Origin: Magnolia sinica | Taxonomy: Eukaryota > Streptophyta > Magnoliopsida > Magnoliales > Magnoliaceae | Length of the DNA stretch: 64,000 bases | Assembly (NCBI RefSeq): GCF_029962835.1 | Contig: NC_080583.1 | Coordinates: 2,696,001 to 2,760,000, forward strand | Reading direction: 5' to 3' | In this document: piece by piece, positions 8,284 to 63,697 of the stretch | Layout: every line of letters begins with the position of its first letter | Position numbering within the stretch: position 1 is the stretch's first letter | Notes under the pieces: generated by a model | The model's input: only the letters and a program-made list of their open reading frames with translations | Database searches by the model: none | Told to the model about the DNA's origin: nothing | Position numbers and translations under genes: made by a program

Positions 8284-8392
8284 TCATATATCGTTCAAAA
8301 CATCCCTAAGTGGGTAAACATGCGGTAGAGATTTTAAGACCCCAAGACTATTTTACGATTTATAATTAATATAATGCAAACTTTTATATCAA

Positions 8393-8465
8393 TCCATTGT
8401 CGTCTAGTCCGGTTAGGATACCTCGCTTTCACCCAGGCGACCCGGGTTCAAATCCCGGCAATGGA
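8393..8465 (+). tRNA. tRNA-Glu (UUC), copy A, with an anticodon-stem mismatch
   Basis: A 73-nt cloverleaf without an intron. The acceptor stem is TCCATTG/CAATGGA, fully paired. The D-arm contains GTCTAG...GGTTAGGAT (A box), the anticodon loop is CTTTCAC with anticodon TTC, and the T arm is CCCGGGTTCAAATCCCGG (B box). The anticodon stem reads CCTCG against CCAGG, leaving a C-C mismatch at the fourth pair; copy B is paired there. A T-run at about 8481 could end Pol III transcription. It may be expressed but less stable. It lies 172 bp upstream of the methyltransferase start codon, so Pol III and Pol II promoters are packed together. Confidence 0.9.
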
Positions 8466-8637
8466 AATTTTAATTAATTTTTTATTCCATTTTAAAAAAA
8501 ATTTATTTTTCGAACCGCGCATGAACAATCGCGCTACGCCATAGTATTTTTATTTTTTTATTTTTTTTCCGCTGCAGCTAGGGTTATTCTGATCTGTCCT
8601 TTTTTCTTTTCCCTTTTTTCTTTTCCCCTACGTTTCC

Positions 8638-9369
8638 ATGGATCGGATCGAGATCGGGCGGCAGGAAGACGTCGCTGCTCCATCGTCTGCTTTGGCCTAC
8701 CTCGATCCTCACTACTGGTGAGATCCTAAACGTTAATCTGAGCTCTCGATCGATCCGCTTCCGGTCTCATTTTCTCCAGCTTTTTTGTGCGATTTTTGCT
8801 CAATTTCACTCTTGTAGATGGCGTTTTCCGTTGATTTTCTAGAATCGTAAGTTTTGTGGAGATTTTTGTGGTATTTTCCTTAAATTTATAATTTTTCCTG
8901 TAAATTTTTGTTCTTATCTCGAGATTTTAATTTTAAGCTGGATTCAAGCTAGTAGGACTTGAATTCTGAGGTTTCTGGAGAAACTTGTAATGGGCTTTTT
9001 ATGTTTTTTACATAATAAAAAAGAAAAGAACTTTCTGTTTGAATTCCTTATAAGTTTTTTTTTTTTAATCTGAATTTTGATTTTCCACTCTTTAAATTGT
9101 ACCTTCTGCTTGAATTTTTCATACTAAGTGCATCTTACAGAAGATTCTTATTCAGTTTTCTATAATATTTTATGTTCTTGTTTGATTCTTAAATTTATTA
9201 ATTTACTTATTTCAGATAACTTTCTGTTTGGATTTCTCAATCTTATGGCATTTGCTTGGTCGGATTCTTCAGGGATCGCCGTTTCTCCTTTGAGGAGCAC
9301 TATGAATGGTTTAAGGAGTATTCTCATTTCCAACATCTTATCCAGCAGCACATAAAATCTTCAGACTCT
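8638..9369 (+). CDS. methyltransferase exons 1-2, copy A (alternative or redundant 5' end)
   Basis: Exon 1 is 8638-8717 (MDRIEIGRQEDVAAP... to ALAYLDPHY), with donor GTGAG. Exon 2 is 9273-9369 (W-DRRFSFEEHYEWFKEYSHF...), with acceptor TTCTTCAG and donor GTACGT. Both are identical to copy B at 11199-11930. Exon 2 starts in phase 2 and ends in phase 0, so splicing exon 2A to exon 2B would shift the frame. Copies A and B must therefore be used as alternatives, each joining exon 3 at 27579. Copy A has its own upstream region and could drive an alternative transcript with an even longer intron 2 (18.2 kb). Whether it is expressed cannot be told from sequence. Confidence 0.8.
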
Positions 9370-9758
9370 GTACGTATCAATTTGATTTTCTGAACGTTTC
9401 CCTTCCGCTTCGATTCATTTGTATATGATTGTTTAGTGGTGGATTGGTGCTCAGTAGGTAGGAATGAATTTCTAATTAGAAGTGAATGTACTAATACAAT
9501 GTTGGATCAGCATTTTCTTGGCCAATAAACTGTAAATGTGGGTCCCACTTTGTAGAGATTGATATAGTTCATATGGTGGGCCCCATGGTGGATTCAAAAT
9601 ACCACAAGGATCATGCCTGTTAGATGAGATTGGATGCCATGATTCCCAGTGGTTTTAAGGGCCTAGCTTGACGCGTTCCATCGGAACTGGGGCCTTGTTT
9701 GGCGTATTGGTTAGGTTTTGAGCATTTCGTACCAAAGCCAACACCATGTCTTGTGTTC

Positions 9759-10239
9759 AGGGTATCCCAAATCGGTTACGTATCGGTAGTAGCGCCGTGA
9801 CATGCTGAATGCAACGGTGGGACCCGTTAAAGCGTCTGAGGGTTAAAGCGGCGTTCACGAATTCTTTGACCTAACGGCCAGTTTACGGTCATGAGCCATA
9901 ACGGCCAAACGGCGTTACTGGATCCATGATTGCTGTGAGCCCTAAAAAAAAACAAAACAAAAAAAAACTCACCTTTTTTTCCTTTCTTTTCTTCTTCTTC
10001 TTTCTTCTTCTTCTTCTTCTTCTTCTTCTTCTAGTATCTTGGGAATGATTGTAATGGTGGAGGCCATGAGTATTCTGCACTCTCTCGCTTCTCTCTTCTT
10101 CTCTCTCTTCCTCCCCCTTCCCTCTTTTTTCTTTTCTCTCTTCCCTCTTTTTCTTTCTTTCCTTCTCTCCTTTTTTTTTTTTTAATCGTGTAGGTACGTG
10201 TCACGCAAGACACACTCCTCGAGCTCGAGTTGTACGAGG
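9759..10239. other. unique DNA between the duplicated copies, with a pyrimidine-rich tract
   Basis: This starts where copy A homology ends. It contains a long CTT/TTC-rich tract (about 9972-10180). Arg/Lys- or Glu-rich ORFs on the opposite strand come from this tract and are not genes. Confidence 0.5.
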
Positions 10240-10735
10240 TTAAAGGAGATCAAAGTTATATGGGCTCCACTGATGTATTTATTACATCTACATTCTATTT
10301 TGAGATCATTTTAGAGCACCGCCCAAAAATGACTTATATCCGATATCATTGGCCCCAAAAAATGAAAAAGTTTTTTACTTAAAAAGAGGGTCGTTTATTT
10401 TCCTAAGTGATACCCAATGGGGATTAGTTATTTTTACCTTCTCCTATTTTCCAGTCATTTTAGAGGATTCAAAAATTAGTTTTAAATTTATGGCCCCAAA
10501 TAAAAAATGGTTTAAATCTATTTAAAATTTTTTAAATAAATTTATTTTAATTAATTTTAATGTAATCATTTTTAAAAAAAAAATGATGTTAAAATTTTCA
10601 TCAAAAATTTATTTGGTATAACATTTAATTATTGTTTTTTTTATTCAATTCACTTTTCATTCATTTTTGGGTATGCCCTAAAATTATTTGGAAAATCGGA
10701 TGGATAAAACATATATCAGGGTGGGGCCCAAAAAC
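10240..10735. mobile_element. diverged MITE of the dominant family (family 1)
   Basis: The left end reads atgggctccactgatgtatt and continues with gagatcattttagagc...cccaaaaatga, the layout of family-1 MITEs elsewhere in the window. The right end reads ggataaaacatatatcaggg then tggggccca, the inverted counterpart. It lies in the spacer between the two copies of the duplicated segment. Confidence 0.55.
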
Positions 10736-10802
10736 TTTCCGGTTTACTTTAATGGGTCCCTCCTAACAATTAAATAATTTAAACGGCAATTTTTAAAATT
10801 TA

Positions 10803-10858
10803 AAAGGAGATCAAAGTTATATGGGCTCCACATGATGTATTTATTACATCTAGTACGT
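10803..10858. mobile_element. truncated MITE left end abutting copy B
   Basis: About 50 bp repeat the left end of the MITE at 10242 (agatcaaagttatatgggct). The match then breaks off at the exact left edge of duplicated copy B, so this marks the breakpoint. Confidence 0.55.
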
Positions 10859-12319
10859 TCATATATCGTTCAAAACATCCCTAAGTGGGTAAACATGCGG
10901 TAGAGATTTTAAGACCCCAAGACTATTTTACGATTTATAATTAATATAATGCAAACTTTTATATCAATCCATTGTCGTCTAGTCCGGTTAGGATACCTGG
11001 CTTTCACCCAGGCGACCCGGGTTCAAATCCCGGCAATGGAAATTTTAATTAATTTTTTATTCCATTTTAAAAAAAATTTATTTTTCGAACCGCGCATGAA
11101 CAATCGCGCTACGCCATAGTATTTTTATTTTTTTATTTTTTTTCCGCTGCAGCTAGGGTTATTCTGATCTGTCCTTTTTTCTTTTCCCCTACGTTTCCAT
11201 GGATCGGATCGAGATCGGGCGGCAGGAAGACGTCGCTGCTCCATCGTCTGCTTTGGCCTACCTCGATCCTCACTACTGGTGAGATCCTAAACGTTAATCT
11301 GAGCTCTCGATCGATCCGCTTCCGGTCTCATTTTCTCCAGCTTTTTTGTGCGATTTTTGCTCAATTTCACTCTTGTAGATGGCGTTTTCCGTTGATTTTC
11401 TAGAATCGTAAGTTTTGTGGAGATTTTTGTGGTATTTTCCTTAAATTTATAATTTTTCCTGTAAATTTTTGTTCTTATCTCGAGATTTTAATTTTAAGCT
11501 GGATTCAAGCTAGTAGGACTTGAATTCTGAGGTTTCTGGAGAAACTTGTAATGGGCTTTTTATGTTTTTTACATAATAAAAAAGAAAAGAACTTTCTGTT
11601 TGAATTCCTTATAAGTTTTTTTTTTTTAATCTGAATTTTGATTTTCCACTCTTTAAATTGTACCTTCTGCTTGAATTTTTCATACTAAGTGCATCTTACA
11701 GAAGATTCTTATTCAGTTTTCTATAATATTTTATGTTCTTGTTTGATTCTTAAATTTATTAATTTACTTATTTCAGATAACTTTCTGTTTGGATTTCTCA
11801 ATCTTATGGCATTTGCTTGGTCGGATTCTTCAGGGATCGCCGTTTCTCCTTTGAGGAGCACTATGAATGGTTTAAGGAGTATTCTCATTTCCAACATCTT
11901 ATCCAGCAGCACATAAAATCTTCAGACTCTGTACGTATCAATTTGATTTTCTGAACGTTTCCCTTCCGCTTCGATTCATTTGTATATGATTGTTTAGTGG
12001 TGGATTGGTGCTCAGTAGGTAGGAATGAATTTCTAATTAGAAGTGAATGTACTAATACAATGTTGGATCAGCATTTTCTTGGCCAATAAACTGTAAATGT
12101 GGGTCCCACTTTGTAGAGATTGATATAGTTCATATGGTGGGCCCCATGGTGGATTCAAAATACCACAAGGATCATGCCTGTTAGATGAGATTGGATGCCA
12201 TGATTCCCAGTGGTTTTAAGGGCCTAGCTTGACGCGTTCCATCGGAACTGGGGCCTTGTTTGGCGTATTGGTTAGGTTTTGAGCATTTCGTACCAAAGCC
12301 AACACCATGTCTTGTGTTC
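10859..12319 (+). repeat. segmental duplication, copy B (tRNA-Glu, promoter, exons 1-2)
   Basis: Second copy of 8284-9758, 1461 bp. It is the copy adjacent to the rest of the gene. Just beyond its right edge (12436-12512) there is a diverged repeat of its own last 100 bp (cagtggttttaagggcctag against cagtggtttaagggctagc), so the edge lies inside an older local repeat. Confidence 0.95.
10968..11040 (+). tRNA. tRNA-Glu (UUC), copy B
   Basis: Same 73-nt cloverleaf as copy A, with G instead of C at 10999. The anticodon stem CCTGG/CCAGG is therefore fully paired. Anticodon TTC lies in loop CTTTCAC, and the A and B boxes are intact. This is the likely functional tRNA-Glu of the pair. The 3' CCA is not encoded, as usual for nuclear plant tRNA genes. 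Confidence 0.93.
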
Positions 12320-15300
12320 GAGTCACGGAGATGATAGTCACCACAAGGTGTAAAGGGCAGCTGGACATAATCCAGAGTGTGTGCCGCTGTTGGGCTGCCT
12401 GACACTGGCTGGGAAGTGTGGTGGCATGTTACAATTCCCAGTGGTTTAAGGGCTAGCTTGACGCATTCCATCAGTCTTGGGCTCTTGGCGTATTGGTTAG
12501 GCCTTTTAGTCTATTTGTTATAACTTTAAATTTCCATTGAGTTTCTATGGTCATCTGGCAGGCGATGTCAGGGAATGATGGCCCATCTTGTGATTGGGCC
12601 CCCAGATTGACAGTTTAGGTTACTGAAAGGTGACTGTTCACTAACTGTACTATTATTAGGTCTAGCCAAAAAAATGCTTCTTTCAACTGAGCATGATGCA
12701 ATAACCCTTTTGTAGATATGGTAAAGGAAAAGACGTTCGCACAAAGGGCCTACTCATGTGCAAACCCTGTTCTTACTTTTACTAATGTTTCTGAATTTTT
12801 CCAGCGGTTCTTGCAAATTTCTACTTTTTAACTTATTCAAATCTTTTCCCTCACACATAGCCACAACTGTTACCACCAAAAACTACCTATGACCACTTCT
12901 CTCTCTCTCGCTCTCTCTCTGATGAGGACATCACATCACGAAGCCATTATGTACATATCAGAGGAGGAGGCGAGCCCGTCTCCCTGTGGCTAGGTGGGTA
13001 CCCGTTCGGGTCTTGAGGAGCTAATGACCCCATATAGCATGTCAGAGCATCATCGAAGACCCCACATTGGGAAGATGCTTGTGATTTGCGTGGTGGACGA
13101 GCTTGGATGAGTTTTGGACGAGTTTTGACCGTTGGATCGCGAGGATGTCATGATCGGACCATTGGATGCGGCTTGATCGCGTGGCCTGCCTTGATCATGG
13201 ACGTCGTCGGTACCCATCGGGCACTTAAGATGATTTAGATTATTTTATACTTTAGTACTTTTGTTAGTTGATTTATTGGATTATATTCTCATTTTCTTTT
13301 AGAAGAGAGTATTTTGAAATAAGTGTTTTGTAGGAGGTAAAAGGCAAACTATGTTTTGCTTAAGCTTTTTTTTTTTTTTTTTTTTTGTAAAAACCCAAAT
13401 CTGGAACTATATAAGGCCTTGAACATCCAATCCTAGGGCCAATGATGCTTTAAATTAAATTTGAGATTTATTTCTTGATGCTCTTGTGCATGGGGTCTTT
13501 TTTAATAGTGTGAAGCCATCCCCTTGGTGTGAATTCAAGACTATCCTAATAGTGTGAAGCCATCCCCTTGGTGTGAATCTAAGACTATCCCTTCTCTTAA
13601 ATGTATCTTCTCAACTTTATCTATTTTCTCACTTTTTTTTTTTGTTCTTTTTCCTTCGCCACTCTCAAATCCTAACATCCAAAACCACAAATCCATCAAC
13701 CAAAACCTTTCGAACCTCAAAACCCACCCAAGTACGTGTGGATTCATCCATCCATACAACTGTATGGACGACCGTACGGTCATCCGTACAACCGCACATG
13801 TGTGGCCTATCTAACATATGGTTTTATTCCCTTTTGCCATTTCTCATCCCATCAATGTTTCCTCGTAAAACTCTCTAATTCATAGTTTCTCATTCTTTTT
13901 ATAAACTCTAAACCCATTAAACCCTAATCCCTCTAAAACCCAAAATTCTCTCAATTCCCTTTTGATGCAAGTAATTCCCCTTGATTGATAGCCTATCTCT
14001 ATGTTAATTTAGGGGTTTCTTAATTCTATTGGGACCAATTGCTTCAGTATGTTAATAGTTCTTATTACGAGCATGTATTAGCCTATGATCTAATATATTA
14101 TCTACTTGTTTACTGTTTTGTATTGATATTAGATTGCTGAAATTTATGAATTATTGCTCATATAATCTGGAAATATGATTTTATCACCACCTTAGGATAG
14201 AAAACTTCATCACGCATAAAATTTTGGTATTAGAGCTTAGGTTAACATAGGGTACATTCCTCTTAAATCTAGAATAGGGTTGTTCATCATCATATATAGT
14301 GTAGATCATCATATTGTGGCATTTTAGGGTCAATTATTCCCATATATATACCGCTTAAATTTGGTACATGCTGTTTAACAATTTACATTGCTAAAATTTT
14401 CGGGCTAGGGCCTCAATCTTAACGCTTTTCATCACACGATCATCAAGATCGTGGTGGTATAGATACTCTCCACGGATGACTGGGCACGTACCCCATTATG
14501 GCCAACACCTCGGCCATGGTCTCTGTCCACCAACGTGATCTCCCATGTGAACTTCCTCTGCACATTTCACTTGGGATTGGCCATCTTCCCCATTGTCAAG
14601 GTTTGCTTGAAGGGAAGTCTCCAACTGACCTATATAATTGTTGGTGGTTCTGCTTTGAGCCTCAAGGGCATCTAGTCGTCTAGTTATGGCATTAAGAGTT
14701 TCGAGAATCTGTTCTTGGGTCATGGTGGTAGGGTGAAGACCAAAAGCACGCCCAGATTGTGTGGGCATGCACTAAGACCCTACGGTGGGGACTCGACATG
14801 ACCCTAGATGATCCTAGACAACTCTAGATGACTCTATATGACCAAAGAGATGCTTTTACCCTAAAAATCTAGCAATTTAACCAACGAAACGCCATGATAC
14901 ACTAAAAATTCAGCAATGTAGCATGGAAATAGTGGGTTATGGGTGCTAAGAAAGTTCAGCAATGGTATAACTAAAGGAATAGCACTAGTATTCTCAACAA
15001 TATGCTAAAATAAATACTAGGACTAAAATTTCAGCAATACACCATGATAAACAATTAGTACCCGAAAATTTCATTGATGTAAATTGCTAAACAGGTAGTA
15101 CCAAATTTCAGTGGTATACATATGTGAATAATTGATCATAAAATGCTACAATATTATGATATACACTATGTATTATGATGAACAAGCCTATTATAGATTT
15201 AAGAAGAATGTACCCTATGTTAACCTAAGCTCTGATACCAAAATTTGATGTATGATGAAGTTTGCTATCCTCAGGTGGTGATAAAATCAGATTTCTAGAT

Positions 15301-18300
15301 TATATGAGCAATAAATCATAAATTTCAGCAATCTCATATCAATTCAAAACAACAAACAAGTATATAATATGTTATAACTTATGCTAATACATGCTCGTAA
15401 TAGGAACTATTAACACAAAAAAGCAATCGATCCCAATGGGATTAAGAAACCCCCAAATTAACACAGGGATAAGCTACCAATAAAGGAAAATTACTTGCAT
15501 CAAAAAAGAATTTTGGGTTTAAGAGAGATTAGGGTTTATGGAAGAAAATGTGATTTAGGATTTATGAAAAGGAGAAACTATCAATTAGGGTTAGGGTTTT
15601 GTGAGGAAACATTGATGGGATGAGAAGTGGCAAAAGGGAATAAAACCATATGCTAGATGGGCCATACACGTACAGAAGTCCGTACGGCTGTACAAATGGA
15701 TGAATCCACACATACTTGGGTGGGTTTTTGAGGTTAGAAAGGTTTGGGTTGATGGGTTTGTGGTTTTGGATGTTAGGATTTAAAAGTGCCAAAGAAAAAA
15801 AAAAAAAAGATGAGAAAAGAATTGAAGTTGAGAGGATACCTTTGAGAGATGAGAAATAATTGTCTTGGATTCACTCCAAGGTAGCTTCCTCTTGGATTCA
15901 CACTAAAGGGATGACTTTACACCATTAAAAGATACTCCATTCACAAGAGCATCAAGAGAGAAATCTCAAATTTCATTCAAAGCACCATCGGCCCTAGGGT
16001 TAGACGTCCAAGGCCTTATATAGTTCCAGATTTGGATTTTTACAAAAAAATAGTTTAAGCAAAGCATATTTCACTTTTTACCTACTACTAAACACTTATT
16101 TTAAGATACCCCCTACTAAAAGAAAATGAAAATATAATCCAATAAATCAACTAACTAACAAAATTACTAAATCATAGAATAATATAAACCATTCTAATTG
16201 CCCGATGGGTCCCGATGACATCCATGATCAAGGTGGGCCACGACGATGAAGCCACATCTACGGTCCAATCATGCCATCCTCTCGATCCAACGGTCAAAAC
16301 TTGTCCAAAACTCATCCAAGCTCGTCCTCCATGCAACCTACAAGCATCTTCCCAATGTGGGGTATTCAATGATGCTATGTGGGGTCTTCAACTCCTCTTC
16401 TAGACTTGGATGGATACTCACCTAGGCACAATGAGACTAGGGCTCGCCTCCTCCTCTAATACGTACGTAACGACTTGCATGATGTGATGTCCTCATCAAC
16501 TTTCTGAGAAGAATTCGCCTTTGACGAAATAAAGCTTCGGTACTGCTCAAGTGAATCTGGATCGATGTTTTGGAACTCTTGTCTCTGTGATCCACATATT
16601 GTCTAAAATCGGTCTGTTTCGGAGGACATGTCACGTAATGGCCATGGGTCCTGCGACAGGTCTAGGTCACTATGATGATCAAGTGAAGTGCTCGGAGTTG
16701 TAGCTGGGGACCTAGGTGGCAGAGGAATTTATTAAGCAAAATTTCCTTTCAAACTCTAGGATACTCATATCATCATAATTCTTGAGATGTTGCAGGTGTA
16801 GGAGGGAGTTCTTGTGAGCTTTTGGGAGCAAACGGATAATATTTATGCAATAGTCCGAAAGACCGTTGCGATAGGGCCGGTGTTGTTGCGCCTGCCGCAG
16901 AAGGCTTAGTGACCGACACGGAGGGTACGGTGGCCATCATGCGAGGGAATGAGGATAACCATGCAAGCGCAAGGCATCTGCTGCAGAAGAGCTGCGACCA
17001 CCATAAAGACTGACTTAGCAACTCCGCGATCGTGGGAGGTTGGTATGGGGATGGTATGGCTGCCACGGAAGCTAGCAGGCCGCCGTGCCTTGGGGACTTC
17101 TCCTCGCGGGCAAGCCGAAGCCTACTAACTTCGCGCTTCACGGTGTTGTTGAGATTCGAATGTCGTGCATCCTACGCGGCACTGTGCCACCCTTGTATGT
17201 CGTTAGGACTTGGCTGATGCCCCAGACCTATACTTAGGGCAATCCCGCCGTGCGGGAGTTGACTCCTAACCTGTCGGTGACCGGAATAAGGGATTCAGTG
17301 ACAGGGTTGAGGAATTCTAGCGATTCCTCTAGTTCCTTCTCTTATTCACTGGTCTGAAGCTTTTTTCTCTTCCAAAAGTCTCTCTTCTGTAGAGTAAAGT
17401 GCCCTATTTATAGGCGAGGAGGGTGACAACAAGGTGAATGAGAGTCCACCATGTGGCGCATTGTGCGGCGTGCTTGTAGTGGTGGCCGTGAGCTAGCCTT
17501 CCTCGCTGCGCGTCAGCCTGTGAGGCGTGGCACGGGTCGTCGCGGGATGTGCCACGCCCCAAACCCGGAAATCAGGCTCACAAAATTCCCGACTGCCGAA
17601 TTTGGTGCCGACAGCTTCCGTAGTATCTCATTCTTGGCTCCCAATGCCCATACGCTACATTCCGATCCTGGGATACTACAAGGAGGATTTTCCAATGTAC
17701 ATTTGTCTCATAAGAAGCATAACCACAAGTTTACCTAAGTCACAAAGGCAACATCATCATCACATATCCACTAATATAAACATTTGAATACAATGCTGAA
17801 AGGGAAATACTTATGTCAAAATCAAAGCTCCAGAAGTCCGCTGCACGCACCAAGCTCAACGCTGCTGCGACCTAACGCCACCTGCACTCATCTATCGTGC
17901 ATAAGCTTATAGAAAGCTTAGAGTGTGGTGTAAGTGTGTGCATAAGGTAAGTGTCAAGTATACAATACAGGTCCATAAATCATACGATATCGGAAATACT
18001 GGCAAGATCATGAATCCTAGGATATCAGAGTAAGTGGAAATACTGGCAATCCATAAATCCATGAACGCTATCAGCCATACCAAGGCTATGTGATGCAAGA
18101 CATGAATGCTGACGACCATATCAAGGCTATGCGATGCAAAATCATAATAAGCCAATATCATATACTGAGAATGCGAAGCAATATACAAATCCTGCTAAGT
18201 CCGTCTAGGCCATATAAGTGTAGAAACATAGCAACCCAAAATGCCAGATGCCGCGGATGTAATGCAATATGCGGTGCGAATGAAATGACCAAGCTGGAGT

Positions 18301-20784
18301 GTGAGGTTGGGATGATAGTACGTAGTATCGCAGACTATGGGGTCCATCACAAGGGACTTCTATCCAAACCAGTCCCATACCTAAATTTGGATAGCCAGAC
18401 TCAATGTGGTAGACTCCTGATCTCAGGTTGGTGGCGCGCCCCAACCGAAATCTTGGCCACTGCGAAGGTACACATGATGACTTTATTTTGCACTACCAGC
18501 CTGAGTGGATAGTGAATGAATAAATGAATGAGTAAAATGTTGGGTATATAACTCCTGCTCAGGAAGTCCACATATCATACCGTACATTTCTGGGATCATC
18601 ATCGGGGTCTAGTACACTCCAAACCAGATTGTCGCCCCATTGCGCGCAAAAAGGTGAGTGGAAGAGACCTCACTATCCGCCTACGAATATCGGGTCCGAC
18701 TTGTTGATAATGGACCCATTCCTCGAGCTGGTCAAACTCAGCCTAGCTTTGCCCCCTCCTCTCGGGCAGGTAAGGCCGCACCCCCTTCCAACTGACCACG
18801 ACACAGTGGGAGACGCGGCCTAATGGTATACGGCCCTCATGCGCTCATGCATTCACTCGGTTTAGACGTTGAAGCAACTTCTGGAACCATGAGGGTTTAG
18901 GGACTTTCACCCAGGAATATCTATAGCACCCCATGTAGAAAAGATTTTCGGTATCCCATCTGGCCATCCACGACATGCCTGTGGAGGCTACGGCCCTGAT
19001 GTCATTAGGGTGTACGGTGGTCATGATGCATGAGTCACACAGTCCAATCATGCATCAATCCTGCACATACCGTGCGCTCATGTGGGGCAACTCTGCCTAT
19101 CAGGGAGCCCCATGAACAACCTGCCCTATGGCATATGCAATGACAAATCACATCTCATAATAAACATGTAGATGATGCGTATGGGCATGTATCATGATGT
19201 TATGGTGTAATATACTTATAATCGGTATCGACAACCGGTACCGATGATCGACATCAATAATCAGCCTATACAATCGAATGCCCCCGCATTAATCACTATC
19301 AGTGAGAAATCTCGAACACGAGACCTCCTGCTCTGATACCAATTTGATACAGGACAATTAACCACTTGCTCTAAAAGCTCGAACTGTTAGAGTATGACGA
19401 ATTAATCCCTTTATCCCATAGCTCAGGCCCCATATCTCATGGGTTAGGACCTCGGCCAAACCCCCTTCGTGGGCTCTAAATCACATGGGCCGCCCACCCC
19501 GAGTGTGTCCCCGCATCCCACAGGCTACTCCACTCAAGCCCGATGTGAAATGCGCATTACTCACCCCTTGTAAGGAGTCTCGAACACGAGATCTCTCCCG
19601 TGGACCCCAAATCGCATGGGTCACCCACCCCAAGTGTGCCCCTGCATCCAACAGGCGACCCCACTCGAGCCCAATGTGAAAATGCCCCCGCATTACTCAT
19701 CAATGTGGACATTTAACCAATATTGCTCCCAAGGAGTGGCCCTTATAGAGCCAGACATATAGTGGGCCTATGGCCTCATACAAGGGCCTAATACACATCA
19801 CTATGGGCCTCACTCATGGGTTGCATATACATCACAATGGGCCTCGCCACATGGGCCATTAATACATCACATCGAGCCCCACTCATGGGCCTCATATACA
19901 TCACAACGGGCATCGGCACATGGGCCATAAATACATCACATTAGGCCTCAACAGATGGGCCGCAAGTACATCAAAATGGGCCTCGGCACGTGGGCCATAA
20001 ATACATCACATCGGGCCTCATGCAAAGACTTTATATACATTGCATTGGGCCTCACTATTGGGCCACAAATACATCATATTGGGCCACACACAAGGGCCTC
20101 ATACACATCCCATTGGGCCTCACTCATGGGCCTCATGTACATCATATTGGGCCTCATCAAATGGGCCACAAACACATCACATTGGACCTCACTATTGGGC
20201 CACAAATACATCATATTGGGCTACACACAAGGGCCCATGGGTTAGGCATAAGGGATGGGTAGTGAGCTTGTTATACATACATCAAGGTGGGCTTAATAGG
20301 GCAGCCTATAACTCAGGAAAAATGGATGGGCAGCCTGAATACATTATACATCACGGTGGGCCGCACAAATGGATGGCATAGATATACGATACATACATCA
20401 CGGTGTCCCTCACAGGGATGAAACACATACATTCAAGGTGGGGGTCCCATCTGTCTAACAAAACGGACAGCGTGGATGTAAACCACATATGTCAAAGGTG
20501 AGGTCCACATGTCCAGATGGATGGTTGGGAGAAACACAAACATCATGTGGCCCCCACACCACCCGTCCAGTTGGACGGTACTGATAAAATACATAAATCA
20601 TGGTGGGGCCACATGTGTGGATATAGAATAAATGCACCAAGCTGGGCCCCATCGTCAAAAGAGCTGGACGGTGTGGATACACACACAGACCCACAGTTCT
20701 TGCTGCTGTCACATGGCACCGCCTAGATGGACGGTGTTTATGTAAAATACATGCATTAAAGGTGGGTCCCACGTGGGGCCCACC

Positions 20785-20859
<75 letters not shown>

Positions 20860-21882
20860 GGGCTCCATCCAGCGTCCAGGAAGGGATGGACGGCTGGGAT
20901 GCAAAACACATATAGAATGGGTCCCACCATCCATATCTGGACGGTGGACTGCATGGATGAACACATGCTTTATGATAGGGCCCACCATCCAGGTCATGGT
21001 GGGCCACGTTAAAATGGATGGATGGTATGATATAAAGCACATATATCGGTGGTGGCCCCACGTGGCACCGTCCAAAATGGACGGTGTAAATATACGATGC
21101 ATACATCGAGTGGGCCCCACCTCCACACGTGCAGTACCTGTGGAGTGGTTCCCACACGGACGGTTGGTGAATAATACATACCTCATGTCAAACCACAGCA
21201 GCAGCATTTGCTGCATGAGATACCCAGCCAATCTACTTTCATCCCACCGTCCAGAGATTGGATGGTGAGGATACAACACATCCATCATGGTGGGGCCACA
21301 CGTGTGGCCCACCAGCCTCAATCAAACTACCTCTGTACTCTCCCATTGTCCAGCAACGGACGGTGAGGATGGGACACAACTCGGTGGGCCCTACAGCTAA
21401 TGGACGGTGTCCAGCAGCGTCCTGGGTTGCTGGCCCAACCAATGGACAGTCAGAATATAGCACATGTTCTGGTGGGACCCACATCAGCGTGGCCCACCCC
21501 ACGTCGCATGGATGAAAGACATGAATCATGGTGGGGTCTCACACAGACCAAGCTGATATTTGATTTTCTCTTCGTCCAGGGGTGCTGGACGGTGCCAGCA
21601 GCTGGCCCGTCCAGGCCTTCTGGCCGTCCAAACCTTAGGTCCACTTGCTGGATAGGGGGGGTGCACACATCACAGTGGGGTCCACCGTCCCAGCTGGACG
21701 GCTGGATAACATATAAACATCAAGGTGCGTCACACATGGATGGGGTCCACCGTCAAATGGATGGTTGGATAAAATACATTCATAACGATGGGCTCCACTG
21801 TCCTAGCTGGACGGCTGGATGAATCACATTCATCAGGTGGGTCCACGCGGCTGCACGGCGTGGATCAAGTGGGCCACACGCA

Positions 21883-21942
<60 letters not shown>

Positions 21943-23919
21943 GAGATTGGATGAGGTGGGAGGAGCTCTGTCACTATGAGCTCCTCCATACAAGATACAA
22001 TGCATACATCAAGTGGGTCCCACCATGTGGGCCCTAAATAAAAAAATGAGATCAAATACTATGAACACCCACCATTTTTGTTTCTTCTTACTCCGATGAA
22101 ATCCCTAGCTCCTCGGCTTCGACTTTAACGGAGGATGATGGAGATTGGACGGTTGGATTGGGTGGTAGGGAGTGGGCCACACCTAGCTTTTCCTCTTCTC
22201 TCATGGAATGTTTGGACGTTGGGTTGCTTGGGAGAATGAGAGAGAGAGATGAGAGAGAGTGAGAGAGAGAGAGAGAGATGGGTGTGAGTGATGGGTGTAC
22301 TTGACTAGGTATGGGTTGTAAGAGAGAGTTGACTTTGGGGAGGGTCGTTGTGATGGGAGTGATGGGATGTGTACTTGGCATTTGATGTGATGGATTCTCT
22401 TGGGATTGCAAAGTGCGGTGTTTTCCTCGAATTGAACGCGAGCCCACATCTCCTGGCCCGGGTATCGCCTCGGCGCGCGAGACGCGCCGTCGTAACATCG
22501 GCAACAGCGCGGTCGCAAGGATACAAGTCTCGGATTGAGCTGACTCAGGAATACGGGATACGACTCAGGGTCGCACGCAACTGTTATCTACGCATCGCAG
22601 GTCGTCGGAATTTGACCGGGAGGACTACAGAAGCCTACAGAACGGTACGGGCTAGGATACGGGTCTCACAAGATGGTTCCGCCTGCTCCGCGCGTCGCCC
22701 TCTGCAATCTCTGAGCGGCTCACGTATGTCGCTCATACTGGTTCCCCACGTCACTTTTCTTTGATGTTTTCCTTTCACACTACTAAGCTGGTGGCGTTCT
22801 GACGTGTCAGCACAGGAGCTTACGTGTTGCCCTGCTTGTCTGGCCACAGGTTAGTTGGCTTTGGCCCTTCTGTCTTATTCCTTCTTGAGTGATGCGCTAG
22901 TAGCTCCTGCGCATTGCCCATGTGCTCTCTGCGTCAATCCTGCCCATCACTCATGCCTTAGTGCCTCGCCTCCTTTTTAGGCCCCAACGACGCCCTTTTG
23001 ATTACTTCGAGTGCCAGCAAAGAGTTTGGGTTAATTCCCAAAGTTAAATTTAGCTCCATGGGGAGTAATCTTAACATTGGACTCATGGGGGTCAAACTGG
23101 CTCCTAAATTGCAATTTTAAATACTGCTCAAGTTCTTGCACCAACTGATAGGCATGCTTAAGGGTGCCAACATCATAAGAGAGTAGCTCGCGCTGAATAT
23201 CGGATCGGAGGCCCATCCTAAAATGTGAAAGAGTCACTATTGGGTCCTCCTTGACATTACATCTCATCATGTACTCTTCAAATTTGGTGATGTAATCCTT
23301 CACGGGCATTGTTCCCTGGCGAAGGGATTGCCATTGATCCATTAATTTCTGGTGATATGAAAGAGGAAGATATTTTTCCTTCAGTGTTTCCTTTATCTGG
23401 ACCCAATTTACAATTGGGTCTTGTCCAGACCTTTCTAACTTGCTCTCAAGATTGGTCCAAAACAATTTAGCCTGGCCCACCAACTTTATCTTGGCAAACC
23501 TCACATGACAATGATCATACATCTCGTACCACTCAAAGTAGTGGTCCATGTCTGCAAGCCAGTCAAGGAAAGCCTTTGGGTCCAGATAACCATTAAAGCT
23601 AGGGGCCTTGATCTTTACGCTTTTCATCAAATGACCATCAAGATCGTGGTGGTCTAAATACTCTCTATGGGGTGGTTGGGCACGCACCCCATTATGGCGA
23701 AAACCTCGTCCATGGTCTTTTCCACGGCCACGAACGTGACCTCCCGTGTGAACTTGGGATTGGCCATTTTCTCCATCATCGGGGTTTGCTTGAAAGGAAG
23801 TCTCCAACTGACCTATACAATTGTTGGTGGTTCTGCTTTGAGCCTTAAGGGCATCCAGTTGTCTAGTTATAGCATTAAGAGTTTCAAGAATTTGTTCTTG
23901 GCTCATGGTCTGGTTATGG

Positions 23920-23960
<41 letters not shown>

Positions 23961-26900
23961 TGCACGTAAAACTATCCAGCATCCACAAACACATCCACAT
24001 GATATCCACTAAAATCGCGTGGATTGTCTACTACAACGTGTGTGGAAGACCACTTTAAAATTCTTTGCTTAATTAACACAATTTACCCGTTAAAACTAAT
24101 AAGACAAATTAACACTAAGGCTTCCAAGCCAAAGTGGGTTCAATCAAATAGACTACAAATGTTCTACCAATAAAGCAACTAGTCTATAAGAGATAGTGAG
24201 CTTATGTGCTTACAAGTGCCTAGCATACAACCCAATTCAAGCATTCTTATTATTTAACTAATCAAACACAATTATGTATAGAATTTGCTCAAATGAAAAT
24301 CACAAGCACAAGCATGTATAATGGTTCGGTTTCCCTATTCTATTCCCAGCGGACGCACTTTCCTCGAGTGTATTGGTATTCACTATTTTAGAAGTTTTCA
24401 ATAGGTTCACCCCTAACATATACAACCCTACACAAGGACCTAACACATGTATACTCCCATGTCGGAGGACATGTTTCCACCCATGTCGGTGGCTCTCGCA
24501 AGAGACTTTAGTTGGTTTTCTATCGGCTAACCAACAACTACTAGTGGTCCTAATGTAAGGCCCTATGTTTTGCTCCCGCCAGAGGCTCCCAAGGATACTA
24601 ACATGTTTACACCCGTGTCCGGTGAAATCAACCCTACACAAGAATCTATTTGAGTTTGGGTCACAAACTCTGCACTCAATCCTACACAAGGAAAGAGTGT
24701 GTGGACTCTGAAATTGACAACTTAGTTGTCAGATTGAGCCCCCTTCGTAGTGTCTTGCTTCCTTTTTTTTTTTGTTAGCTTGTTAGTACACCCTACTGTC
24801 AGATCACACTTCACTGTTAGCCACCCCCACTAGGGATCGATACCAAGACCTCAGTGTTCGTAGTGTCTTGCTTGAGATGCTTGATCGATTCTCTCCTGTG
24901 CCTCAATCAGCTTCTCAATTGCTCCCTCAATCGCTGATGCTGATGTTTCAACTCTTATGATCAACCGCCTTGCAAATGATGCTCCTATGAGGTGATCAAG
25001 GTGGTGGGAGGATAGTGGAATCTCCTACAACTAATAGGATAGTTGTTTTCCAAGAAGGATTCACCTAAATGGTTGTTCTAAGGGATTTAAACGAGGATTT
25101 AAGTATAGGTTCATGTCTAATCTCTAGAACAAGGTGGATATCAGGTTCATCTTCATAATCGAGGTTTGAATCCTTTTTAGAGTGGTAAAGCTCAAGTATA
25201 TGACTTATATCTCATTGGTTTAGAGGCTTAGGATGAAGGATATGAGTGGGGAATCACCTAGACTTCTATTGCACCAAAAACCCATCATAATGCCCAAGGT
25301 TCGTATGCCCTTTAAAAAGGAACCAAGTTCTAACGATACAAAAAACGAGCAGAAAACGACACATTCAATCGATTGAGTGATGCTTCAATCGATCGACCAA
25401 TTCCAACATTTTTCCAGAAAGCTTGCTAGACGATTTTGGTCGTCGTTGATCAATCGAACGGGGTCCGTCGATCGAGACCAATTGAAGGTCCATCGATATG
25501 ATCGAGAAATTCCAGATATACATGATTAGCTTGCTGGACATTTCTAGCAGTCATCGATCGATCGGACCAGTGCCATTGATCGATCGACCAGGTCACCGAT
25601 TGATCCAATTGCTCTCGACAACACCTATGAGTCTGCTGGTTTGGGCAGTTTGGTTTCCAGTAGCTTAGGACCTCTATAGCCTATGTAAGCATGTTCAAAT
25701 GGAGCTCCTAAGGCTAAATGGTGATCAAAAGAAGGTTTACCTATTAAGGTTAGGAGCATCTAGAGGCTAGGTTGTTTTGGGTCTAAGGTTAGGGTCACCA
25801 AGGCACCTCAATTTGCGTGTTCTTCACTTCCTTGATGCTCCAACTCTTCATGTGTCTTCGGTCTTCAGTTTCCAAGGGCTCAACCGTCTCACTGACACAT
25901 ATACGCACGTGATTGACAAATAGGTGCATAAATAAGTGCACTAACATCCACAACTGCTCAAAGTCACTTATCATCCCCCTCTCCTTCTCTCCTGAAGGAG
26001 TAGATAAGAGAAAATTTAAATTCATATCTGAACATGTTTCTGTCTCGAAGAAAGATTGGTAAATTCTTATTTGCAACAAGGCCTCTCCATTCATCTATCT
26101 CAAACTAAGTACCATATTTGCTTCAACGAATATATACGGCGGGGAAGCATTTTCCTGTGATCGGAATGTTTGATCTGATAATAAACACCATGGATTGGAA
26201 GATTAGTCATCCAACAAATTTTTTCTCTTTCGAATGTCAATGGTTGCCCTTTTCTCTCTAATCTGTTTACAAGAAGCAGATGGAAGGGTTAGGATTTAAT
26301 TGCATCCCAGTGATTTTACGGTTTCTATCTATCCAACTAATTAATGTCTTGGATCTCACTCATATGCACATATTGTCACGTGTTCCTACAGGTTAATGCA
26401 CTCTGGGAGCCTCGCAGAGAGTGATGTTTCATCCACAACCCCTCAAAAGGCATTCATATGACACACAGTAACTTATTAAACAGTTGATGTTGTGGGACCC
26501 ACTGTTGAAACTCAACCCAACCTGAACCAGATCCATTGACAGCCCTAAAACTTATTAAAGAGTTGATGTTGTGGGACCCACTGTTGAAACTTGACCCAAC
26601 CTGAACCAGATCCATTGACAGCCCTAAAACTTGATAAGTACTGAACTCGATCAGATTCCGTCCTGTATCCTAAGCATGGTAGTAGAACCTGAACCTGACT
26701 TGACCCCATTTATTAACTATATTTTTCACATTTTCAAGTCTTCTCTTTCTTGGGAAATGGTTGTGACTGCTTTATCAGTTGTAACGTGTTCCATCCAGAA
26801 TGGGGCCCATGAGTTCAATATAGATTATCCTACATATGGAAAAGGTGGGCTACCAATGACACTCATCTCTCTGGGCAGGGCTCAAATGTACATTGACTCA

Positions 26901-29082
26901 TAATAGCAGCTTTCCGTCAGTTGTCTGGCCTGATGAGTGAGATTGACCCAATATTCATGCAAGGTTATCTTCAAGGTGGGGCTGATATATGTGACGCGGT
27001 GTTGGAAAAGAAATGTTGTATATGAACCATCACATAGACGGGTTGCATGTGATAACTTAGCTTTTAAGAAACAGTTCCTCGTAGTTCAGTTGGATTATGC
27101 TGTAGCTGAAACCATCATTGCACTGGTAGTCCACATGAGATGATCCAATGATTATACCCATTTATCTTTCTTCTGGTCACTTTTATGATTGTTCGTCTTA
27201 TGCTCTCTTTCTTTGTTGTTTCTTCTGGGCATTGTCTAGTGGTCCCATTAGTATTGTAATTTTTCAACGAAGGAGCTCCTTAATTCAACATTGAGGTCTC
27301 AGGTGCATCGAGCTTACTTACCAGAAATGATGACAATGATTTGCATCTTGTCATGATGACTGGTTATTTTATATAATTGGAGAGATTGACTCCACTTTGT
27401 CCATGAACTATGAAGGGAAAGATAGAAACTTTTCAAGGAACGGTTAAACAATTTGGTTGGTGGGGCTCCATAAAATCCTTTTCATGTTCCCAATCAGAAC
27501 TTATATTCATTGTTTATAAAATTACGTTCTCTTAAATTTGATTTGACACACTGTCTGTGATGAATGTCTGAAATTTAGGTGTTGGAGCTTGGTTGTGGAA
27601 ACTCGCAGTTGTGTGAAGAATTGCACAAAGATGGGATTACTGAAATAACATGCATTGATCTTTCAGCAGTTGCTGTCGAAAAGATGCAGAAGCGGTTATT
27701 AGGCAAGGGATACAAAGGTTTGTGGTTTGGATCTCTATCAAATGTTCCATCAAGTGTTCATACCTGGTCATTTCCTCATATCCCATGTGAAGGGTTAGAT
27801 AAAATAATCAAGTGGAAAAATATTCAGATTTTGCCATTATTCGCAAATGGAATGCCCACAGTACCCTGGCCATTTAATGAGAAGATTTGTAGTTTGTACT
27901 GCAATGCTATGTTTTGGATGAGAGTCCTAAATATCTTGGCAGTATTGGAAATGCTGCAGTTCTTAAAGATGGCCAATCAAAAGATTTCTTATATTCTTTC
28001 AGATATCAAAGTGATGGAAGCTGACATGCTAGACTTGCCCTTTGGCAACGAGTGTTTTGATGTCGTAGTTGAGAAAGGAACCATGGTATGGTCAAGCATC
28101 CTGTTTTAAGGTTTTTACTTAAAATATTGATGTATGCATCTCTTTTCTGCTTGAATCTTTATTGAGCCAAGCCTGTAAAACGTGTTGAATTTGAAGGATG
28201 TATTGTTCGTGGACAGTGGCGATCCATGGAATCCAAAGCCTGCAACCGTGAACAAGGTGATGGCAATGCTTGAAAACGTTCATAGGGTTTTGAAACCAGA
28301 TGGAACTTTCATTTCAATTTCTTTTGGACAGGTACACAAACCAAACTACAGAAACTGCTAGTTTCTTTTCTTCTTTTTCAAACTCTTAATTTTCATGTTT
28401 TACAGCCACACTTCAGGCGTCCTTTGTTTGAAGCCCCAGAGTTCACTTGGTCCTTTGAGTGGAGCACTTTTGGGGATGGATTTCACTATTTCTTCTATAC
28501 CTTGAAGAAGGTTTGTATGAATATCTATAGATTTTATACAGCCATCTTAGCACACTTTTTTTTTTGAAAGATTTTGTCTTTATACACTTAAGCCATTGCT
28601 TTTGTGTTATACAGGTTTGCTAAAATGGGGCTAGACTACTGTTTACATTTTCCCCTTTTCTTAAATGGTGGCGACTATGGTTCAAAATATCAGCTGCTAC
28701 GTAGCATTTTGGCTGATACATGTTGGGTATCGGTGGATATTAGATACTACTTGATAAGAATCACCATACCCAAAATTTTGACAGATTTGGCCCATATGAA
28801 CATATGCACAATGGTGAAACTGTTTTCCCCTTTTTCTTTGTCGTTTTTGGCGTTTTTATCTCTTAGAGAAAGGGCCAAAGGGGTTTTCTTTCTCTTGTAG
28901 AGTTGTGTATACGTCATACGTTTTTGCATGCACACACAAATATATGATGTTTTGGCAGTTACTGATTTACCTACAAAATATCCTGAGACTCAAAAAGCTA
29001 AAGATGGTAGGGCGGCTGAAGAAGTCGAAATTCGGTATCAACATTGGACAGACACACAACGGCAGCCATACCACAAAGCTGT

Positions 29083-32033: not shown

Positions 32034-32159
32034 GAGATTTTCGGAAATCCACGGTTCATAACGCACCAATCCCTCCCGCGGCGTTATCCGTTCCCCATCT
32101 TCTTCAAAAACCCTTCCATACATTAGAAAAAACAGGAGAAGGGTCTCGCAGGGGCAAAA

Positions 32160-35100
32160 ATGTCAATTTCCATCTCATCTCTCTCATCCTCTCTCGCAGC
32201 TCTCTCCTTCTCTTCCCAAATATCTTCTAAGCCCAAAACCCTCACCTTCATCCAAAAGAAATATCCCCAAAATGCCCTCGCCCTGAAAACCCCCCTCGTC
32301 GTCGTCGCCGCATCTGCCGCTGCGGTGGCAGCCACGCCTGCTGATTTGGAGACGACGAGTATCGAGAAGTACGTGAAATCGAGGCTTCCTGGAGGATTCG
32401 CTGCGCAGAGGATCATCGGGACGGGCCGCAGGAAGTGCGCGATCGCACGCGTAGTTCTTCAGGAAGGGACTGGAAAGATCATCATCAATTACCGCGACGC
32501 CAAGGTGTGGAAAATTTCCCCATTTTTTGATATTTACTCACACCAGATTGATGAATGCAACCTATTTCTTTCGTACTTAATACTGTGATGAAATTGTAAA
32601 GAGAACTGATTACCTACAACCCCTTGCGAAAGTATGAAAATTTTGTTGATTTTTTTGGATATTTACACCCACCTGATTGATAGATGCAACCTCTTTCTTT
32701 CGTACTTAATAATGTGATGAAATTGTAAAGAGTACTTAATAATGTGATGAAATGAGTACTGATCACCTACAACCCCTTGCAAAAGTATGAAATTCTCGTT
32801 TATTTTTTTGGATATTTACACCCACCTGATTGATAGATGCAACCCATTTTCTTTCCTACTTAATACTGTGAATACAATCACAGAGGAGCACAAAAAAAAA
32901 AAACAAAAACAAAAACAAAAAACAAAAAAGCCAGTACAACTATCACATAGGTTCCCATTCCTTAATCAGCAAGAACACTTTTGAAAGAGCCGAGGACAGA
33001 GAGCCGCAATATTCCTAAAATGGCAGTTGTTAAGTTCTCCCCAAATGGTCCACGATGCTGCTAGAAGAGATAATCTCCACTTCTGCCTCGCACTCCCCTC
33101 TGGCATGCCTTCATGCCACAAAGATAAGAGGCTCTCTGGAGAGGCAAGCATAGCCCAGGAAACGTTGAAGAATCGAAGAATGTTGGACCCCACAGGAAGG
33201 CAGCAAAATGGCAGTAAATGAAAAGATGACCAACTGATTTAGCTTCCTCCATAAATGGAAGGGAAATATTAGGAAGGACCATATTGTGCTTTTGAAGATT
33301 ATGAACTGCGAGGACTCTATTGCAACCCACTAGCAGCCACGCAAAAGCGGAAACCTTTGTTGGGGCACCATACGACCAGGCATAACTGCGACCTCTGCCA
33401 GATTCATTGGGACTCCTATGCCGAATAAAGTTACACAACAATCTGACTGAGAATAGACCAGATTTGTAAATCTGCCATCAAACCCCTTAGGAAAGTATGA
33501 AATTTTTATAGATTTTTTGGTATTTACACCCACCTGGTTGATAGATACAACCCCTTTCTTTCCTACTTAATACTGTGATGAAATTGTAAAGAGAAGTGAT
33601 CACCTACAACCCCCCCTTTTCTCCGCAAGCATATTTCTTTGAGGATGGATCTAATGAAGGATAAGGTTAACTTACAAATCAATGTGTGGGGGCCACCATG
33701 ATTTTTACTGGATCCAACCCATCCATCATTCCGCCCTGCCCAAGTCTCCTTGGATCGCACAACTCAGGTTGATCCAAAATTCATGTGACACACTATGTAA
33801 GATCATGCCTAAAACCTTTAAAATCATGTGTTGTGGACCACCTGAGGTTTGGAGTTACTGTTTTTTGGGTGTTCGTTTATCTTGGTCACTTGTCAAATGA
33901 ATTTTCTGGATGAATTAGATGGCATGTCCAAAGTAGGGAGGGCCCCAAGTACAATGTGGAATGTTTTTAATGCTGTGTCCCAAGTGTGGCCTATACTATC
34001 AATGGTTTGGGTTAGCGAGCAATGGGCCCCAATTGTACAAATTGAAAGCCCAGATGATATTGTACAATCTCTTAGGCGGAAAGGTTGTCTAGTGCTGCTC
34101 TGGTTGGTTTGTACTTTGTAGAACTGGGGCAAGCAGGGCCTGTGATTTAGCGATCCAAACAGTTGATAGTATGAACCTCAAATGTGGATGGGCCATATAT
34201 GAGAATTTATCCAGATTGAAGTTGGTGGGGCTGTCAGGAGGCTCTCAAAGTCTCCGTAGCTTATTCCAGTCCTATAGACTTGCAGGGTCTGAATTTAGTA
34301 GGTGCATGGTTTGAAAAATCATCCTACATGACTTGGCATCATTCATGTCATATCTGCTTCAGTCTGAAATGAAGCGAGTTACCACACTGGATACTGGACT
34401 GAGTCAGACCGAATCAGGATGAGTCTTACCAGTTTTGGTCCCCAGGCGAGTCCCCCTGTATCGCCTGTATCGGGCTGCCTTAGGCTGATGCAGTTTGACA
34501 CAGTCGTCTCTTTCATGGATGATACCTGTACATAGTAGGCGATACCATACTGGTTTCAGACGATACTTTAAACATTGGTTGTATGATTGTATCCCACCAT
34601 TGGTGAACAATGCCTCAAAAATCTCCTTGATAAAACAACCTAGCCTCTGCTTGTGTCCTATAGATTTATCATTAAGAAGAGAGACACAGTAATGGTCCGC
34701 ATTCAGCTGAAAAGGCCCTGATATCAGTTGCTGGGCCTTCCAATCTGGTAGATTTTTTATTTTTTATTTTAAATATCATTCTCCATCAATGGCCTGACTC
34801 AATGTGACAATGGTCTGGATTACAAAGCAGGATGGCTGGAATTCCTCTAGGAAATGAAAATTGATTTGGGTCAGAAAAGCAACATGAGATTTGAGAAAAA
34901 TGGAATATGCATGGTGCAGTTTTTGCTCTCCATCACGCAGCAAACACAGTTGGATGGAAGGGCATTGGTTATTTTCACTAAAGTTGTTGCATATCAATAC
35001 TAAATATTAATCAGTAGGATCTGTCTTCTTAATATAATGCATAGTTTTCCAAGAGCTCTTGCTAGAGCAATTCATTGCATTAATATTTATTTTTTTAATC

Positions 35101-62395: not shown

Positions 62396-62481
62396 TGCAC
62401 GATGCGCAAGGCTTTGGCAGGAAATCCGCGTGCCAGGTACAAGTTGAAAGGGAAAGCGTATTGGCTGGTCACCCAATCGGA

Positions 62482-63048: not shown

Positions 63049-63139
63049 TAGTACCCAAATTCGCGTCCGTTGAAAGGAAAGCGGATTGGCCGGTGGACCT
63101 CACACTAGCTATATAGCTGACGGATTGACAACAGTAAGT

Positions 63140-63545: not shown

Positions 63546-63697
63546 TTGACTTTGATCTCCTTTGAACCATTCGTATAACTAAAACCGGAGGAGACACATA
63601 CCTACAGCTGTATAGCTGGTGTGTGGTACACGAGCCAATTAGGCGGGACGAGGATTGCAGCCTACCCCCGCCCAGATGGTAATCCGTCTGGGTAGGG

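What the first reader, a model, noticed from the sequence alone, without database searches (positions are those of the whole stretch)
8284..12319. Methyltransferase promoter, exons 1-2 and an upstream tRNA-Glu duplicated in tandem
Two 1.46-kb copies, about 2.56 kb apart, differ by only one base and one 14-bp indel. Each has a complete tRNA-Glu, start codon, exon 1, intron 1 and exon 2. Exons 1 and 2 cannot be chained from A to B without a frameshift, so the gene has two interchangeable 5' ends. This could double promoter output, or be an assembly duplicate.
Basis: seen in the sequence. Interest (0 to 1): 0.75.

Follow-up and report, generated by a model that had tools for sequence, protein, structure and literature searches.

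The report
Likely false duplication in plant assembly
The apparent doubling of a plant methyltransferase gene's front end, with its tRNA gene, is most likely a genome-assembly error, because the stretch joining the two copies is a transposon piece that looks full of raw long-read sequencing errors.

Summary

The 1.1-kb spacer decides. It begins at the first base of a hAT-type transposon (~1.9-kb family, 8-bp target duplications) and follows it for ~1.25 kb. Against the family consensus it shows 88 deletion events, 9 insertion events, 117 substitutions, ts/tv 0.44 and almost no CpG decay. Of 24 other copies, 23 together have 157, 127 and 1030; only L033 resembles the spacer. This looks like unpolished long-read sequence, not evolution. 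The genome fits the published Magnolia sinica assembly, made from ONT reads with gap filling.

Best reading: a false tandem duplication at a bad join; the real locus probably has one 5' end, with a hAT insertion in intron 2 on some molecules. If real, linear splicing 1A-2A-2B-3 breaks the frame, making copy A a decoy. No reads were available, no N marks a gap, and the copies are closer than two haplotypes would be.

The parts
8284..9758 (+). Copy A of the repeated segment (probably the false or gap-filled copy). Its last base (9758) can equally be read as the first base of the transposon.
8393..8466 (+). tRNA-Glu(TTC) of copy A, with a C-C mismatch in the anticodon stem at 8424
   Evidence: 6 of 6 related tRNA-Glu loci examined have G there
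8598..8611 (+). Extra 14-bp pyrimidine repeat unit of copy A
8638..8717 (+). Exon 1A coding part (80 nt)
9273..9369 (+). Exon 2A (97 nt, 3n+1)
9758..10805 (+). 5' ~1.25 kb of a ~1.9-kb hAT-type, apparently non-autonomous element, read with very many short deletions (long-read error signature); 3' end missing
10800..10852 (+). ~53-bp second piece from inside the same element (equivalent to 10242-10290), followed by 6 bp, then copy B
10859..12319 (+). Copy B, continuous with the true right flank
10968..11041 (+). tRNA-Glu(TTC) of copy B, intact; identical over 74 nt to 3 of 6 related loci examined elsewhere in the genome
11199..11278 (+). Exon 1B coding part (80 nt)
11834..11930 (+). Exon 2B (97 nt)
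12203..12501 (+). Interspersed repeat with a tRNA-like T-arm (12312-12328) that runs unbroken across the right edge of copy B; copy A is cut inside it
27579..28509 (+). Exons 3-6 of the methyltransferase (27579-27717, 28003-28085, 28197-28331, 28406-28509; the 3' edge of exon 6 is not fixed to the base and later exons were not modelled)

Best explanation
The tandem duplication is most likely an assembly error. The real locus probably carries one copy of the 1.46-kb 5' end (tRNA-Glu, promoter, exons 1-2), and on at least some molecules a ~1.9-kb hAT-type transposon sits in intron 2 at CTTGTGTT (9750-9757). At this transposon the assembly seems to have broken or been joined badly: one piece ends left flank-segment-hAT, the other begins with the same segment and runs into the right flank, and the join was made with little-corrected long-read sequence without noticing that both sides hold the same 1.46 kb. 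Shown: the error-like divergence of the spacer, the transposon's 5' terminus at the A/spacer junction, the missing 3' end, the second internal piece, the continuity of copy B with the right flank, and the derived base in copy A. Inferred: that the divergence is read error, which assembly step made the join, and that only one copy exists.
For: (1) Spacer vs family consensus: 88 deletion events (65 of 1-3 bp), 9 insertion events, 117 substitutions, ts/tv 36/81, CpG to TG/CA in 1 of 33. The 23 clean copies of 24 together have 157 deletion events, 127 insertion events and 1030 substitutions. In consensus 301-600 the spacer has 8 substitutions and 21 deletion events; the 24 other copies sum to 190 and 43, with at most 4 deletion events each. 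(2) The genome fits the Magnolia sinica assembly: C8 is 92,164,922 bp, the scaffold N50 printed in PMC10999834. That assembly was made from noisy ONT reads, merged with QuickMerge, gap-filled with LR_Gapcloser from ONT reads and then polished with Illumina reads. LR_Gapcloser takes its fill from one read or two read ends and may use uncorrected reads; in a benchmark with PacBio reads its fills had a mean identity to truth of about 88-90%. (3) The two A/B differences lie in a tRNA gene with many relatives in the genome and a 90% pyrimidine stretch, where short-read polishing is weak (inference). (4) Copy A carries a base that 6 of 6 related tRNA loci examined lack. (5) The spacer is the element's 5' part plus a second internal piece, as if two read ends abut.
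Against: There is no N in the window, and no reads were available. If A and B came from two haplotypes, the 1.21% heterozygosity printed for this individual predicts about 17.7 substitutions in 1461 bp and one was found (P about 4e-7); so they would have to be one haplotype assembled twice, or have been made alike by polishing. The other noisy copy (L033) has no flanking duplication, so noise alone does not imply a false duplication. The spacer has clean runs of 22-40 bp and, in two 100-bp bins, 20 and 23 substitutions, so it is not uniform deletion noise. Its stretch 10350-10619 matched nothing in the scored list, and 10442-10700 is a weak inverted repeat of itself (63%); both are unexplained.
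Confidence: 0.8

Rival explanations
1. A real, recent tandem duplication made at the transposon. A hAT element inserted at CTTGTGTT, excised, and the break was repaired by copying with template switches (element 5' part, an internal patch, then 1.46 kb of upstream flank) until the strand annealed at the target-site copy before the right flank. Copy A would be an upstream decoy 5' end whose transcripts splice 1A-2A-2B-3 and decay; copy B makes the protein. The spacer would only be badly sequenced.
For: Element 5' terminus at the junction; family with 8-bp target duplications (20 of 26 fetched loci perfect); CTTGTGTT lies before the element in A and before the right flank in B; internal 53-bp patch at the other junction; A and B far closer than two alleles would be. 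Tandem duplications up to 4.9 kb are known in rice (PMC7971508 passages); filler DNA is known in maize (PMC2686159 passages).
Against: With ~100x ONT reads a real heterozygous or homozygous structure should give a clean consensus (inference); 23 of 24 other family copies are clean. The spacer is rich in short deletions. The maize fillers named are 1-131 bp, far shorter than 1.1 kb.
Confidence: 0.13
2. A real tandem duplication with an old, decayed transposon copy as spacer (ancestral order left flank - element - segment - right flank, with copy A inserted at the element's end).
For: The spacer is only 72% identical to the family consensus in the multiple alignment (88% of paired bases in the pairwise alignment with freer gaps) and has no close donor among the scored matches (40 of 3658 candidates scored). 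Copy B is continuous with the right flank and holds the common tRNA base.
Against: Old copies should show transition excess and CpG decay, as the more diverged clean copies do (e.g. L016 ts/tv 1.58, CpG to TG/CA in 14 of 72); the spacer shows 0.44 and 1 of 33, and blocks of perfect identity broken by short deletions.
Confidence: 0.05
3. One reading: a real duplication giving two interchangeable 5' ends that raise output of the methyltransferase, as at PEP1 of Arabis alpina.
For: PEP1 has a duplicated exon 1 with parts of promoter and intron 1, and both first exons are spliced to the same exon 2 (PMC3527215 passages). Here 1A-2A-3 or 1A-2B-3 would give the same protein.
Against: Unlike PEP1, exon 2 is duplicated too; linear splicing 1A-2A-2B breaks the frame. 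The duplication itself is doubtful.
Confidence: 0.02

Closest known systems
False duplications in genome assemblies (PMC9516828)
   Same: Near-identical adjacent copies that break a gene model, joined by badly supported sequence; the paper names gaps, or unsupported sequence from incorrect gap filling, between copies as a mark (passages).
   Different: No N gap is left here, and A and B differ less than two haplotypes of this plant would.
LR_Gapcloser-type long-read gap fills (PMC6324547, PMC8848313)
   Same: Sequence taken from single, possibly uncorrected reads, with low identity to truth.
   Different: That LR_Gapcloser, rather than the QuickMerge join or the assembler, made this stretch is inferred; its two-read case would leave 100 N, not seen here.
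PEP1 of Arabis alpina (PMC3527215)
   Same: Tandem repeat of exon 1 with parts of promoter and intron 1, upstream of shared later exons.
   Different: PEP1 copies are 6.3 kb apart, the sequence upstream of them is highly diverged, exon 2 is single, and both transcripts were shown; here exon 2 is repeated with a frame-breaking length and the repeat is doubtful.
hAT superfamily DNA transposons
   Same: 8-bp target duplications, and CAGGG start in 19 of 24 family copies (superfamily features recalled).
   Different: The spacer copy has only the 5' part; no transposase was sought.

Membership tests
Assembly false duplication | Half (or lower) read depth over each copy | not testable with these tools
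   No reads held
Assembly false duplication | Gap or unsupported, incorrectly filled sequence between the copies | tested here: inconclusive
   No N, but the spacer has a long-read error signature
Assembly false duplication | Heterotype: copies differ at about the level of heterozygosity | tested here: not met
   1 substitution against 17.7 expected at 1.21% (heterozygosity); homotype, or later levelling by polishing, not excluded
hAT-type transposon (spacer) | 8-bp target-site duplication and conserved termini across family copies | tested here: met
   20 of 26 fetched loci perfect (one of them CCCCCCCC), 3 more with 1 mismatch, 1 with 2, and 2 without both ends (shifts of the ends by up to 3 bases were allowed)
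hAT-type transposon (spacer) | hAT transposase or its domain | not tested
   Family copies are ~1.9 kb; none was scanned for a transposase
LTR element with copies A and B as LTRs | TG...CA ends and a 4-6-bp target duplication | tested here: not met
   Ends TCATATATCG / TCTTGTGTTC, flanks ATGTGAGG / GAGTCACG
PEP1-type partial duplication with two working 5' ends | Both first exons can splice by default into shared downstream exons in frame | tested here: not met
   Exon 2 is repeated, 97 nt; 1A-2A-2B-3 stops at nt 196
PEP1-type partial duplication with two working 5' ends | Transcripts from both 5' ends | not testable with these tools
   No RNA data
EEF1AKMT4-like methyltransferase (gene name recalled) | Sequence similarity over the length to human MGC2408 (2PXX; species recalled) | tested here: met
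   E 6.7e-38, query 20-212 of 213; Pfam Methyltransf_31, _25 and _11

The most novel reading that the evidence does not exclude
A real, very young duplication born from abortive repair of a hAT excision has given a methyltransferase gene a second, upstream tRNA-promoter-exon module that acts as a frame-breaking decoy. Its tRNA is crippled by one base in the anticodon stem, so the two modules form a natural test of whether a tRNA gene 157-171 bp upstream affects the mRNA.
Probability: 0.1. Interest if true: 0.45.

Novelty: not a real feature. Interest (0 to 1): 0.12.

Why it matters
It matters mainly as a warning: a gene model with two 5' ends, and an extra tRNA gene with a broken stem, would enter annotation and copy-number counts although the join is poorly supported. 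The test used here needs no reads: compare a suspicious stretch that contains a young transposon with its near-identical relatives. Many short deletions, no transition excess and no CpG decay point to raw-read sequence. It also flagged a second place in the same assembly (L033).

Tried and rejected
LTR-retrotransposon reading (copies A and B as LTRs): no TG/CA ends and no target duplication. Helitron or TIR boundaries for the whole A+spacer block: judged by eye from the ends printed; no fit. Target-site preference to choose between CTTGTGTT and the left flank ATGTGAGG as the element's original site: scores 0.28 and -0.25, not discriminating. Simple dating (about 50-230 thousand years from one substitution) is meaningless if the copies are an artefact. 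Rfam scan for a tRNA in the repeat at the right edge: none, so its tRNA origin rests on a T-arm only, and two further T-arm-like matches exist on the minus strand of the window. Sigma-70 promoter scan: not applicable to a plant. First tRNA comparisons on the wrong stretch or strand were replaced. In one search exons 5-6 were mislocated; corrected. A flanking duplication at the other noisy copy was sought and not found. A whole-genome count of similar noisy joins could not be done, and paralogues of the gene could not be sought. Papers: search listings; passages of PMC9516828, PMC4812662, PMC6097286, PMC8166872, PMC2686159, PMC7971508 and PMC8848313; outline, abstract and passages of PMC3527215; passages and the assembly section of PMC10999834; passages and the gap-closure section of PMC6324547. 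No paper was read whole. I made no search for a printed report of this locus.
Full report
What is in the sequence. Two direct repeats, 8284-9758 and 10859-12319, are identical except for one base and one 14-bp unit of a pyrimidine tandem repeat. Each carries a tRNA-Glu(TTC) gene, 171 bp (A) or 157 bp (B) before an ATG, then exon 1 (80 nt), intron 1 and exon 2 (97 nt); the surroundings of the three splice sites compared (about 50 nt on each side) are identical. Exons 3-6 lie at 27579-28509. The joined protein matches PDB 2PXX, MGC2408 (E 6.7e-38), and Pfam methyltransferase families; I recall 2PXX as human EEF1AKMT4.

What the gene would do if the repeat were real. 1A-2A-3, 1B-2B-3 and 1A-2B-3 encode the same residues through exon 6. 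But the next acceptor after exon 2A is that of 2B, 2.46 kb away, against 18.2 kb to exon 3, and 1A-2A-2B-3 shifts the frame and stops at nt 196, 78 nt before the 2B/3 junction. So copy A would mostly feed nonsense-mediated decay (inference). This is the difference from PEP1 of Arabis alpina, where exon 1 is repeated and both versions splice to one exon 2 (PMC3527215, passages).

Which copy is original. The one substitution puts a C-C mismatch into the anticodon stem of the copy A tRNA (52.7 against 62.8 bits). All 6 related tRNA-Glu loci examined have G at that place, and 3 of the 6 equal copy B over 74 nt; these six are the best-ranked other loci, whose list holds more tRNA-like matches that I did not read. 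The right edge of copy A cuts an interspersed repeat. In 4 of 4 other copies of that repeat fetched, the alignment of B and its right flank continues past the edge (to 12325, 12366, 12500 and 12501), while the alignment of A stops at 9757-9760; in one of the four the extension is only 6 bases. A canonical T-arm is complete across B and its flank and broken in A; two other such matches occur on the minus strand of the window, so this alone is weak. So B and its right flank are most likely the undisturbed sequence.

What the spacer is. A search of the window's own genome (1.84 Gb, 127 contigs) with the spacer found 89 matches from 40 of 3658 candidates scored. Eight copies compared share the spacer's first bases but not what lies before them: the 1500 bases before the element in L015 gave one 26-bp match to L014 and none to the other six. 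Of 26 family loci fetched, 24 had both ends, 20 had a perfect 8-bp target duplication (one is CCCCCCCC) and 3 more had one mismatch; elements are 1.82-1.98 kb, and 19 of 24 start CAGGG. This is a hAT-type family (superfamily criteria recalled). The spacer follows the element for about 1.25 kb of its 1.9 kb and then has a second, ~53-bp piece from inside the same element before copy B.

The decisive point. I compared the spacer and the 24 full copies with the family consensus under one alignment scheme. The 23 clean copies have 0.05-0.79 deletion events per 100 bp and ts/tv 0.64-2.40 (the low ratios are in copies with few changes); more diverged ones show CpG decay (14 of 72 in L016). The spacer has 7.0 deletion events per 100 bp (65 of 88 of 1-3 bp), 0.72 insertion events, ts/tv 0.44, and TG/CA at 1 of 33 CpG. 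In consensus 301-600 it has 8 substitutions and 21 deletion events; the 24 others together have 190 and 43, none more than 4 deletion events. I know of no evolutionary process that gives this mix, while noisy long reads do. One other copy, L033, is of the same kind (3.6 deletion events per 100 bp, ts/tv 0.47) and is much noisier after consensus position ~634 than before. Cautions: where the spacer is very unlike the family, gaps may be misplaced and ts/tv drifts to 0.5 by misalignment; the consensus 301-600 count avoids most of that. In two other 100-bp bins the spacer has 20 and 23 substitutions, and its part 10350-10619 matched nothing in the scored list; these parts are not explained by short deletions.

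Where the genome comes from. C8 is 92,164,922 bp, exactly the scaffold N50 printed for Magnolia sinica; the printed total, 1,839,595,854 bp in 130 scaffolds, exceeds the held one by 1,022,573 bp, within 6 kb of the two organelle genomes together. The paper describes ~100x ONT reads corrected and assembled twice, merged with QuickMerge, scaffolded with 100-bp gaps, filled with LR_Gapcloser from ONT reads and polished with Illumina reads. LR_Gapcloser may use uncorrected reads and takes fill from one read or from two read ends; a benchmark with PacBio reads gives its fills about 88-90% identity (passages). The spacer's make-up, element 5' part plus a second internal piece, resembles two read ends placed side by side. 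But in that case the tool's paper says 100 N are left until a later round, and there is no N here; I cannot show which step made the join.

Conclusion and limits. The two copies most likely come from two assembly pieces that both held the 1.46-kb segment and were joined over a poorly read transposon. The residual A/B differences sit in a tRNA gene with many relatives and in a pyrimidine tract, as expected if copy A was polished from raw sequence (inference). Against this: there is no N in the window, no reads could be inspected, the near-identity speaks against two unlevelled haplotypes (17.7 substitutions expected, 1 seen, P about 4e-7), and the other noisy place has no flanking repeat. A real duplication born at a hAT excision remains possible, at about one in eight.

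Noticed in passing
L033 / L042 (G000 C7, about 79.761-79.764 Mb): A second copy of the hAT family with the same deletion-rich error signature, much noisier after consensus ~634 than before; probably another unpolished fill in the assembly. No near-identical repeat flanks it.
   Followed up: partly
8393-8638 and 10968-11199: A nuclear-type tRNA-Glu gene ends 157-171 bp before the methyltransferase ATG in the same orientation; in grapevine the median distance of dicistronic tRNA-mRNA pairs is 133 bp (PMC8166872, passages). Read-through here is untested.
   Followed up: partly
12920-14404 and 15061-16498: A large inverted repeat with ~1.5-kb arms, 80% identical, in intron 2.
   Followed up: no
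11931-27578: Intron 2 is 15.6 kb and holds transposon remains, among them a Retrotrans_gag frame at 23031-24008 on the minus strand.
   Followed up: no
about 62475-63593 (-), and 46111-46205 (-): Pieces related to the spacer at 70-89% identity, perhaps older relatives of its hAT family.
   Followed up: no
32127-32588; 53937-54488 and 58137-58700; 33061-33477 (-) and 54887-55330 (-): Frames with a ribosomal protein S9 match, IBR and Ariadne domains (an ARIADNE-type E3 ligase gene), and two zf-RVT frames, probably remnants of non-LTR retrotransposons.
   Followed up: no
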